Shown in pieces: positions 13,703 to 35,881 of a stretch of 64,000 bases of DNA; the first letter of the stretch is position 1; each line of letters starts with the position of its first letter. The stretch covers positions 186,001 to 250,000 of the forward strand of contig NZ_JAGSPI010000002.1 in assembly GCF_020381325.1 (NCBI RefSeq). The letters run 5' to 3'. The position numbers and the translations under genes are program-made. The stretch comes from Providencia vermicola. Its GTDB lineage: Bacteria; Pseudomonadota; Gammaproteobacteria; Enterobacterales; Enterobacteriaceae. The notes below the pieces were generated by a model, which saw only the letters and a list, made by a program, of their open reading frames with translations, was not told the DNA's origin and did no database searches.

Positions 13703-13725
13703 AGGGCAGAATTGTATTCTGCCCT
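13703..13725. repeat. Terminator hairpin, upstream copy of a duplicated target
   Basis: A 23-bp palindrome, A-GGGCAGAAT...ATTCTGCCC-T, identical to 13867-13889. The two copies flank the 141-bp element at 13726-13866 and look like a target duplication of the former fadH/sstT terminator. Confidence 0.85.
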
Positions 13726-13866
13726 GAGGTTGTTGACAAAGCAGGATAAAAGCGTCGTTTTTCCTGCTTTGTGTTATCAGCCGAAAATCAATAAATTGAT
13801 TTTCCTAATTTATTTTCAAAACCTATCCAACCTGCAGTCAAACCTAATCGGTTTGTCAGCAGTCTG
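13726..13866 (+). mobile_element. 141-bp MITE-like element, copy 1 (inside a terminator)
   Basis: A 141-bp non-coding unit beginning GAGGTTGTTGACAAA and ending in CAGCAGTCTG. Its inverted counterpart at 34647-34787 has the same length and differs at three positions. The ends form an imperfect terminal inverted repeat (GAGGTTGTTGACAAA against CAGACTGCTGACAAA, 11 of 15). It contains three hairpins: ACAAAGCAGGA/TCCTGCTTTGT (13736-13772), GAAAATCAAT/ATTGATTTTC (13783-13804), and CTGC..CAAACC/GGTTTG..GCAG near the right end. It is flanked by a 23-bp direct repeat that is a full terminator hairpin. No coding capacity; a transposase would have to act in trans. Confidence 0.8.
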
Positions 13867-13894
13867 AGGGCAGAATTGTATTCTGCCCTTTTCA
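13867..13894. terminator. Bidirectional terminator between fadH and sstT
   Basis: The second copy of the 23-bp palindrome keeps its T run (CCCTTTT) on the plus strand and thus can still end fadH transcription. Together with the A run before the first copy (13699-13702) it reconstructs the original bidirectional terminator. Confidence 0.8.
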
Positions 13895-34627: not shown

Positions 34628-34646
34628 AGCCATCAGGATGATGGCT
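34628..34646. repeat. Terminator hairpin, upstream copy of a duplicated target
   Basis: AGCCATCAGGATGATGGCT, identical to 34788-34806; the two copies flank the 141-bp element. This first copy has no T run behind it. Confidence 0.85.
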
Positions 34647-34787
34647 CAGACTGCTGACAAACCGATTAGGTTTGACTGCAGGTTGGATAGGTTTTAAAAA
34701 TAAATTAGGAAAATCAATTTATTGATTTTCAGCTGATAACACAAAGCAGGAAAAACCACGCTTTTATCCTGCTTTGTCAACAACCTC
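34647..34787 (-). mobile_element. 141-bp MITE-like element, copy 2 (inside the lpoA terminator)
   Basis: Reverse complement of the unit at 13726-13866, the same length, with three differences. It starts CAGACTGCTGACAAACC and ends TTGTCAACAACCTC on the plus strand. The flanking 19-bp direct repeat is a complete terminator hairpin of a sequence unrelated to the one at the first locus, so the repeat belongs to the target, not to the element. It sits between lpoA and yraN and thus in the leader of yraN if both are co-transcribed. Confidence 0.8.
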
Positions 34788-34811
34788 AGCCATCAGGATG
34801 ATGGCTTTTTC
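34788..34811 (+). terminator. lpoA terminator (retained copy)
   Basis: AGCCATCA and TGATGGCT with a three-base loop, followed by TTTTTC. The element lies between the lpoA stop and this working copy, so read-through as far as here is expected. Confidence 0.8.
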
Positions 34812-34824
34812 AGACAAGGACGTC

Positions 34825-35199
34825 ATGAAAGCAATTCAAAAACCCTTAAGATGGTTAACAGGTCGATATTACGAAAATCGAGCTCTCGCATTTCTGAAAA
34901 AACAGGGGCTAACCTTTATTGAACGCAATGCCAGAAATCGAGGTGGGGAAATTGACCTCATTATGCGTGATAAAACAGGTTGGGTGTTTGTTGAGGTTCG
35001 ATTTCGCAAAAATTGTGATTACGGTGATGCGCTTTTATCAGTAAACTGGCATAAACGTAGAAAGTTATTAGCCGCAGCCAAAATTTGGCTTGCACAGCGA
35101 CAAGAGAGTTTCGAAACCAGTGCCTGTCGATTTGATATTTGTGCTATTACAGGCAATCAATTCGAATGGATACAAAATGCCTTTAATGATGAAGGCTAA
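34825..35199 (+). CDS. yraN: UPF0102 family protein YraN
   Basis: 124 residues with the restriction-endonuclease-like fold of UPF0102: GRYYENRALAFLKKQG near the start, then NRGGEIDLIMRDKTGWVFVEVRFR near residue 39, giving the E-x(n)-D-x(n)-ExK/R type nuclease motif. Function unknown. Start at 34825 with AAGGA at 34816-34820; longer in-frame starts would begin inside the terminator and are rejected. It lies between lpoA and diaA, as in E. coli. Confidence 0.93.
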   Translation: MKAIQKPLRWLTGRYYENRALAFLKKQGLTFIERNARNRGGEIDLIMRDKTGWVFVEVRFRKNCDYGDALLSVNWHKRRKLLAAAKIWLAQRQESFETSACRFDICAITGNQFEWIQNAFNDEG

Positions 35200-35225: not shown

Positions 35226-35881
35226 TTAGCGATTGCAGCCAACACAGCGACAGCGCGAACATGACGGGTTTACCCTAAATAATTCGTGTTGTCGCAAGGC
35301 GGCAAGTGAGCTAATCCCTATGAGCATACAAAAGTATGTGATTAGGGTTAGCGATTGCAGCCAACACAGCGACAGCGTGAACATGACGGGTTTACCCTAA
35401 ATAATTCGTGTTGTCGCAAGGCGACAAGTGAGCTAATCCCTATGAGCATACAAAAGTATGTGATTAGGGTTAGCGATTGCAGCCAACACAGCGACAGCGT
35501 GAACATGACGGGTTTACCCTAAATAATTCGTGTTGTCGCAAGGCGGCAAGTGAGCTAATCCCTATGAGCATACAAAAGTATGTGATTAGGGTTAGCGATT
35601 GCAGCCAACACAGCGACAGCGCGAACATGACGGGTTTACCCTAAATAATTCGTGTTGTCGCAAGGCGACAAGTGAGCTAATCCCTATGAGCATACAAAAG
35701 TATGTGATTAGGGTTAGCGATTGCAGCCAACACTGCGACAGCGTGAACATGACGGGTTTACCCTAAATAATTCGTGTTGTCGCAAGGCGGCAAGTGAGCT
35801 AATCCCTATGAGCATACAAAAGTATGTGATTAGGGTTAGCGATTGCAGCCAACACAGCGACAGCGCGAAGAATGACGGGTA
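35226..35881 (+). repeat. Tandem ERIC array: partial copy plus five full 122-bp units
   Basis: The right half of an ERIC at 35226-35275 is followed by five full units that start TAAATAATTCGTGTTGTCGC at 35276, 35398, 35520, 35642 and 35764: the spacing is 122 bases each time. Units are almost identical; GGCGGCAAG (units 1, 3, 5) alternates with GGCGACAAG (units 2, 4), which suggests growth in steps of two units. Each core (CTATGAGCATACA / GTATGTGATTAGGG) can form a long stem. The array fills the space between yraN and diaA. Confidence 0.93.

What the first reader, a model, noticed from the sequence alone, without database searches (positions are those of the whole stretch)
13703..13889. A 141-bp element whose target duplication is exactly a whole terminator hairpin
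The sequence shows a 141-bp unit flanked by a 23-bp direct repeat that is itself the full fadH/sstT terminator palindrome. The second locus (34628-34806) has the same unit, with a 19-bp direct repeat of an unrelated terminator palindrome. Target duplications of different length that in both cases match the complete stem-loop suggest that the insertion machinery recognises the hairpin itself, perhaps as single-stranded DNA or a cruciform. The unit ends in an imperfect inverted repeat (11 of 15) and has no coding capacity. Insertion leaves a working terminator, so it is nearly harmless to the host. I know of no described element with this target rule, though IS elements aiming at REP palindromes are known.
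Basis: partly seen in the sequence, partly recalled or inferred. Interest (0 to 1): 0.8.

Follow-up and report, generated by a model that had tools for sequence, protein, structure and literature searches.

The report
Jumping DNA that duplicates terminator hairpins
A short mobile element in Providencia, with no transposase of its own, inserts at terminator-like hairpins and ends up with a copy of the whole hairpin on each side; a group of IS1182-family insertion sequences does the same and probably supplies its enzyme; hairpin targeting in that family was known, the exact duplication rule and the link to these small elements look new.

Summary
The 141-bp unit has 26 near-full copies in its own genome, and 23 of 24 genomes of the genus (own included) have matches. 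Of 86 near-full copies examined, 80 are flanked by a direct repeat that is a hairpin, different at each site (18-31 bp; centred on the dyad at 64 of 77 independent sites). Orthologous empty sites carry one hairpin. The unit's ends match YPAL of Yersinia (17/17 and 14/15 bp), a known repeat reported at dyads, and autonomous ~1.6-kb IS1182-family elements in Providencia. Across 80 IS1182 loci (nearly all Proteobacteria), 38 of 49 with both flanks have hairpin duplications, and 121 of 128 ends abut a hairpin (random positions: 29 of 1200). Hairpin targeting by IS1182 members (IS1272, ISCbo5) is published, but IS1272 deletes the hairpin; in what I read, whole-stem-loop duplication appears only as a hypothetical branch of a 2017 model. 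Best reading: an IS1182-mobilised MITE whose transposase joins at the two 5' feet of an extruded hairpin, so hairpin size largely sets duplication length. Membership and rule are well supported; the cruciform step is inferred.

The parts
   Evidence: identical to 13867-13889; folds as a 10-bp stem; terminator-like on the - strand
13726..13866 (+). 141-bp MITE with IS1182/YPAL-type ends
   Evidence: only short frames cross it, the longest 51 aa; ssDNA fold z -6.1
13726..13740 (+). left terminal inverted repeat GAGGTTGTTGACAAA
   Evidence: 14 of 15 with the YPAL right end
13736..13772 (+). left subterminal hairpin, overlapping the inverted repeat
   Evidence: centroid fold; the IS1182 left end of L328 also has a hairpin right behind its terminal bases
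13783..13804 (+). central hairpin
13832..13862 (+). right subterminal hairpin
13852..13866 (-). right terminal inverted repeat CAGACTGCTGACAAA (17/17 with the YPAL left end when extended by CC)
13867..13889 (.). second copy of the duplicated hairpin, followed by a T-tract on the + strand
   Evidence: + strand terminator-like 13866-13890
34628..34646 (.). first copy of the duplicated hairpin at the second site (19 bp)
   Evidence: identical to 34788-34806; fold
34647..34787 (-). second MITE copy, 138 of 141 identical to the first
34788..34806 (.). second copy of the duplicated hairpin at the second site
   Evidence: single hairpin at the orthologous empty sites L219, L220

Best explanation
The unit is a MITE mobilised in trans by an IS1182-family DDE transposase. 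The transposase pairs the two ends (CAGACTGCTGACAAA / GAGGTTGTTGACAAA) and captures a palindrome, usually an intrinsic terminator, probably extruded as a cruciform. [quoted passage not shown] Gap repair copies each hairpin, so the whole stem-loop is duplicated and its length follows the hairpin rather than a fixed stagger. SHOWN: shared ends, hairpin-length repeats centred on the dyad, single-hairpin empty sites, autonomous IS1182 elements with the same kind of ends and the same rule. INFERRED: trans-mobilisation, cruciform extrusion, 5'-foot joining, gap repair.
For: MITE: 81 of 86 copies have a scored direct repeat, 80 of these score as hairpins; 77 independent sites; 18-31 bp, mean 22.1. 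Repeat centre equals the dyad at 64 of 77; first base A at 75, last base T at 75 of 77; length correlates with the G/C core (r 0.55, p 2e-7); 4 of 77 end inside the core against 13.1 expected with permuted lengths, none of 10,000 permutations as low. A T-rich tract lies next to the hairpin on at least one side at 62 of 77 sites. Empty sites at three own loci (second window site, L006, L021) show one hairpin in G018 and G014. IS1182: G004 (Providencia burhodogranariea) has two IS of 1576 and 1596 bp with hairpin repeats; four Providencia plasmid loci read, two of them the same insertion, have uninterrupted annotated transposase genes and hairpin repeats. Across 80 loci: 38 of 49 with both flanks have repeats of 16-28 bp, centred in 36 of 38, length v core r 0.79; 121 of 128 ends abut a hairpin v 29 of 1200 random positions. 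Lengths 18-28 are all used, so every helical phase is, which is hard for a rigid linear target.
Against: The own genome shows no IS1182 transposase match at E <= 0.001, so no current helper was found. Length does not follow the core one to one in the MITE set (slope 0.47): short cores carry longer A/T tails, so a preferred size near 20-23 bp exists. The A-first/T-last rule could by itself keep cuts out of G/C cores. 15 of 77 sites have no T-rich tract on either side by the measure used, so not every target is an obvious terminator. 5 of 86 MITE copies lack a scored repeat and a sixth (L135) has one whose right copy no longer scores as a hairpin. 11 of 49 IS with both flanks lack a scored repeat: eight have different hairpins on the two sides (recombination or deletion is one reading), L256 and L272 score on one side only, L265 on neither at the ends the script chose, though it has a second, outer pair of ends that does abut two different hairpins. 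In Yersinia aldovae 2 of 10 YPAL copies with both ends have 9-bp repeats and no hairpin repeat, and 3 of 10 have none that scored. Seven of eight distant IS1182 loci show no hairpin repeat. No experiment shows extrusion.
Confidence: 0.75

Rival explanations
1. The transposase reads the palindrome as linear double-stranded DNA: a dimer binds the two symmetric half-sites and cuts with a long, flexible stagger of about 22 bp bounded by A-T pairs; no extrusion.
For: Lengths cluster at 20-23 bp; first base A and last base T at 75 of 77 sites each; slope of length on core 0.47, not 1.
Against: Lengths span 16-31 bp with every length from 18 to 28 used in the MITE set; cuts respect the G/C core more than permuted lengths do; in the IS set r is 0.79; by eye no shared half-site sequence among the hairpins (no motif search was run).
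Confidence: 0.25
2. The target is a hairpin on single-stranded DNA, such as the lagging-strand template.
For: The two window hairpins fold well as single strands; MITE orientation relative to the T-tract is biased, 30 right only v 9 left only, p 0.001.
Against: A duplication needs joining on both strands (established knowledge of DDE enzymes); the 14 one-sided IS cases show no such bias, 5 v 9. Replication direction was not tested.
Confidence: 0.1
3. Insertion is random and only copies in terminators survive selection.
For: Terminators are fairly harmless places (inference).
Against: Selection does not make the repeat boundaries coincide with the hairpin; centring at 64 of 77 sites.
Confidence: 0.02
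4. The hairpins belong to the element or pre-existed as tandem pairs.
For: None found.
Against: Hairpin sequences differ from site to site; the empty sites read hold one hairpin.
Confidence: 0.01

Closest known systems
YPAL / RU-2 (Yersinia palindromic sequence, ~168 bp)
   Same: Same asymmetric ends (17/17 and 14/15 identical); described as making target duplications of 3-26 bp at or next to dyads (PMC2229807, passages); in Yersinia aldovae 5 of 10 copies with both ends have a hairpin-type repeat of 18-25 bp.
   Different: Interior unrelated (no better than shuffles); 168 v 141 bp; 2 of 10 copies have 9-bp repeats without a hairpin repeat. The passages I read name no transposase for it.
IS1182 family, CAGACTG-ended subgroup (including IS on Providencia plasmids)
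   Same: Ends of the same kind, hairpin target and hairpin duplication.
   Different: Autonomous, 1.5-1.6 kb, encodes the transposase (NF033551).
IS1272 / TnSha1 (IS1182 family, staphylococci)
   Same: Targets hairpins, several of them terminators (PMC4923244 abstract and passages; PMC5678879 abstract, passages and first part of the Discussion).
   Different: Removes part or all of the hairpin and makes no target duplication; [quoted passage not shown]
ISCbo5 (IS1182 family, Clostridium)
   Same: All insertion sites but one are hairpins at gene ends (PMC3098183, passages).
   Different: Duplication of the hairpin is not spelled out in the passages read; its supplementary table of repeats was not seen.
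IS1182 family as listed in ISfinder
   Same: Direct repeats of 2-60 bp are quoted for the family (PMC7335449, passage).
   Different: The passage gives a length range only, no link to hairpins.
ISCfr1-like IS1182 members
   Same: Same transposase family, about 29% identical.
   Different: Ends GATTCTGTTGAAAAA; no hairpin repeat, only 4-6 bp (L382, L383).

Membership tests
MITE of the IS1182 family | ends shared with an autonomous IS1182 element | tested here: met
   CAGACTGCTGACAAA identical in the MITE right end and the left ends of Providencia IS; the other ends are similar, not identical
MITE of the IS1182 family | same target rule and duplications as the autonomous element | tested here: met
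MITE of the IS1182 family | no transposase gene inside | tested here: met
   141 bp; longest frame that crosses it is 51 aa
MITE of the IS1182 family | a helper transposase in the same genome | tested here: not met
   no match at E <= 0.001 in G000 (19 contigs); 4 of 24 genomes of the genus match, strongly only G004; intact genes on Providencia plasmids. This bears on present activity, not on descent
MITE of the IS1182 family | mobilised in trans by that transposase | not testable with these tools
   needs an assay
YPAL / RU-2 | terminal sequences | tested here: met
YPAL / RU-2 | about 168 bp with the YPAL interior | tested here: not met
   141 bp; interior scores no better than shuffles (52 and 244 of 500 reach it)
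YPAL / RU-2 | duplications at dyads/terminators | tested here: met
   for the unit; for YPAL itself 5 of 10 copies
IS1272-type stem-loop replacement | target hairpin removed, no duplication | tested here: not met
   two hairpin copies at filled sites, one at empty sites
REP / RAYT or IS200/IS605-type elements | Y1 transposase, no target duplication (features recalled) | tested here: not met
   target duplications present; linked enzyme is DDE (PF13751, PF01609, NF033551)

The most novel reading that the evidence does not exclude
A DDE transposase whose target is a DNA shape: it docks on the four-way junction of an extruded terminator hairpin and joins at the two 5' feet, so it has no fixed stagger and duplicates a whole stem-loop of any size. 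One IS1182 subgroup and its MITEs (the Providencia unit, Klebsiella relatives, most YPAL insertions) would all work this way, while IS1272, a relative, joins at the 3' feet and deletes the hairpin.
Probability: 0.55. Interest if true: 0.8.

Novelty: new variant of a known kind. Interest (0 to 1): 0.62.

Why it matters
It supplies a natural, many-copy example of a transposition outcome that, in the part of the paper I read, was drawn only as a hypothetical branch (PMC5678879). It offers a parent family for YPAL-type repeats; the 2007 review (passages) says that movement of such small repeats by transposases had no experimental support yet. If the cruciform reading holds, each insertion records a hairpin that was extruded or recognised in a living cell, so these elements could map cruciform formation across genomes. 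Terminator-seeking insertion that leaves a terminator-like site on the far side would also explain how such elements spread at low cost, including on conjugative plasmids.

Tried and rejected
Rfam: no credible match (two hits far under gathering score). Phages and E. coli genomes: no match to the unit itself at E <= 1e-5. Unit searched in 295 genomes drawn from the order: 10 matched, most by short stretches of 21-44 bases (only two candidates per genome were scored). TIR pattern in the own genome: I saw no inverted pair at IS distance. IS1202 (long duplications, from memory) was considered before the ends led to IS1182; search gave nothing to the point. Paper searches with nothing to the point; useful listings. 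Passages without bearing on the rule.

Rows dropped before counts: one search was given 72 of the 80 IS loci (8 Rhizobium tropici contig-end copies left out); one search repeated it with all 80. Of the same-genus copies listed (a capped list) I fetched 60 near-full ones from five genomes (G018 13, G014 27, G005 8, G021 7, G016 5); shorter ones and copies in other genomes were not measured. Own partial matches L027-L030 were left out of the 86. Three sites with shared flanks (L145, L161, L181) were dropped to get 77. The first core-span measure overran into A/T tails; one search replaced it. One search scanned 20 of the 23 YPAL matches and found both ends in 10. Only 8 distant IS1182 plasmid loci were read for contrast: L381 (Enterococcus) has a 25-bp hairpin repeat, the other 7 show none. 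The flag FILLED is a false pattern hit at least at L347, L377 and L216. In one search the script chose an inner pair of ends at L265.

Solved structures: no sequence relative in the PDB at E <= 1. No structure model was obtained.

Full report
OBSERVATION. The unit at 34647-34787 is its reverse complement with 138 of 141 identical bases, between two identical 19-bp copies of another palindrome. Both palindromes fold from first to last base. The own genome (G000, 19 contigs) gives 30 matches, 26 of them near full length. Of 24 genomes of the genus, own included, 23 have matches.

THE RULE. I measured 86 near-full copies: 26 own and 60 from five same-genus genomes. 81 of 86 have a scored direct repeat, and 80 of 86 have one that also scores as a hairpin. 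The rest: L014 (hairpins on both sides, one-base indel), L025, L026, L177 (two diverged hairpins), L182, and L135 (repeat present, right copy no longer scores as a hairpin). After removing three shared sites, 77 remain: repeat length 18-31, mean 22.1; repeat centre equal to the dyad centre at 64 of 77; first base A at 75 and last base T at 75; length v span of the G/C core r 0.55 (p 2e-7, slope 0.47); four sites end inside the core by the measure used against 13.1 expected with permuted lengths, none of 10,000 permutations as low. In words: the repeat nearly always holds the whole G/C stem-loop plus one to a few A-T pairs on each side. A T-rich tract stands next to the hairpin on one or both sides at 62 of 77 sites; 15 have none by that measure, so 'terminator' is the usual, not the proven, nature of the target.

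EMPTY SITES. At the second window site, at L006 and at L021, the two genomes with the most similar flanks, G018 and G014, have one hairpin and no unit. The first window site is not conserved in those two. Behind the same gene, G002 (L208) carries an independent, diverged member between two copies of its own hairpin (AACCCGCTAATTCAGCGGGTT), and G010 (L212) has a single hairpin there.

WHAT IT IS. A paper found by a search for YPAL prints the 168-bp YPAL/RU-2 repeat of Yersinia (PMC2759123, passages). Its ends are those of this unit: 17 of 17 bases at one end and 14 of 15 at the other, with the same asymmetry; the interior is unrelated. A review (PMC2229807, passages) says YPAL makes duplications of 3-26 bp at targets that span or adjoin dyads. 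In Yersinia aldovae, 20 of 23 YPAL matches were scanned and 10 had both ends; 7 of 10 have a scored repeat, 5 of them hairpin-type (18-25 bp) and two of 9 bp. Klebsiella aerogenes and K. pneumoniae relatives fetched here also sit between hairpin copies, by inspection (L062-L064).

THE PARENT. A consensus of the ends, searched in 394 genomes of the order, showed enriched genomes and one inverted pair 1.5 kb apart. That locus (L106) is an IS with a 25-bp palindromic repeat at both sides and a split transposase of the IS1182 family (PF05598, PF13751, NF033551). In the genus, 4 of 24 genomes match the transposase at E <= 0.001, strongly only G004. G004 holds two such IS, both with hairpin repeats; the search for related loci names it Providencia burhodogranariea; their transposase frames are broken. 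Uninterrupted transposases (NF033551 486.7 bits for L328 against a cut-off of 270) occur on Providencia plasmids; the four loci read (L328-L331) all have hairpin repeats by inspection, L329 and L331 being the same insertion.

BREADTH. The search for related loci kept the best 80 IS1182 loci of 461 confirmed relatives, from Gamma-, Beta- and Alphaproteobacteria and two Acidobacteria bins. All 80 were analysed: 49 have both flanks, 38 of these have a repeat (16-28 bp), centred on the dyad in 36 of 38, first base A and last base T in 31 of 38 each, length v core r 0.79. Of 128 ends with flank, 121 abut a hairpin by a score that 29 of 1200 random positions reach. Among the 11 without a scored repeat, eight have a different hairpin on each side; L256 and L272 score on one side; L265 scored on neither, but has an outer second pair of ends next to two different hairpins. 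In Zhongshania and Rhizobium tropici several contig ends pair up by sharing one hairpin. More distant IS1182 members differ: of eight plasmid loci only L381 (Enterococcus) has a hairpin repeat; the ISCfr1-like L382 and L383, with other ends, show 4-6 bp.

MECHANISM. A DDE transposase joins two 3' ends to two points of the target; the distance between the points on opposite strands becomes the duplication (established knowledge). A spread of 16-31 bp, using every length from 18 to 28, yet symmetric about the dyad and following the hairpin, fits a target in which the two joining points stay together while the DNA between them varies, i.e. the feet of an extruded hairpin pair. Wan and colleagues drew this for IS1272 as pathway b of their figure 13 (PMC5678879, first part of the Discussion read), while IS1272 itself removes the hairpin. 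The data here fit pathway b. The A-T boundary and the slope below 1 leave room for a linear-dyad reading. Both element types also have a hairpin close behind the terminal bases, which may be bound the same way; that is speculation.

EFFECT ON THE HOST. At the first site each convergent transcript would meet a hairpin without its T-tract, then the unit, then the far hairpin with a T-tract; terminator-like sites are found on both strands at those far copies. So termination is probably kept, with a longer structured 3' end. At the second site the scan lists only the minus-strand hairpin of the pair.

NOVELTY. Hairpin targeting by IS1182 members and dyad targeting by YPAL are in print. Not found in the searches listed in Tried and rejected: whole-hairpin duplication as a general rule of an IS1182 subgroup, and the link between that subgroup and YPAL-type repeats including this one. 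I file it as a new variant of a known kind.

Noticed in passing
window 35226-35880: Tandem array of a 122-bp unit, 5.4 copies, 97% matches, just downstream of a small frame ending at 35199; a 25-bp piece recurs at similar spacing in same-genus genome G014.
   Followed up: partly
L160 and L332: The two hairpin copies are exact reverse complements of each other (loop flipped) in one Providencia MITE and in one Salmonella plasmid IS; template switching in a quasi-palindrome or inversion could do this.
   Followed up: partly
77 MITE sites: The T-tract lies on the CAGACTG-end side only at 30 sites and on the other side only at 9 (p 0.001); 23 have both, 15 neither; IS elements show 5 v 9.
   Followed up: partly
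L121, G383:C11: A MITE with IS1182-type ends and an interior that resembles REP-like palindromes (resemblance from memory); a 156-bp query of it has a place covering at least 80% of it in 5375 of 5426 E. coli genomes, so such elements probably sit in laboratory strains.
   Followed up: no
L127, G014:C1: A decayed IS1182 copy with the same hairpin at its outer ends that holds a MITE-type right end next to a different hairpin: nested insertion or recombination.
   Followed up: no
L205, L207, L208 v L212: The terminator behind fadH was hit independently by a diverged member of the family in another Providencia lineage.
   Followed up: partly
L394, L399: YPAL copies with 9-bp repeats and no hairpin repeat, perhaps the default stagger on non-palindromic DNA.
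   Followed up: no
L265: Two left and two right IS1182-type ends in one locus, the outer pair next to two different hairpins.
   Followed up: no
L028, L030: Short palindromic pieces like the unit's right end alone, in the own genome.
   Followed up: no
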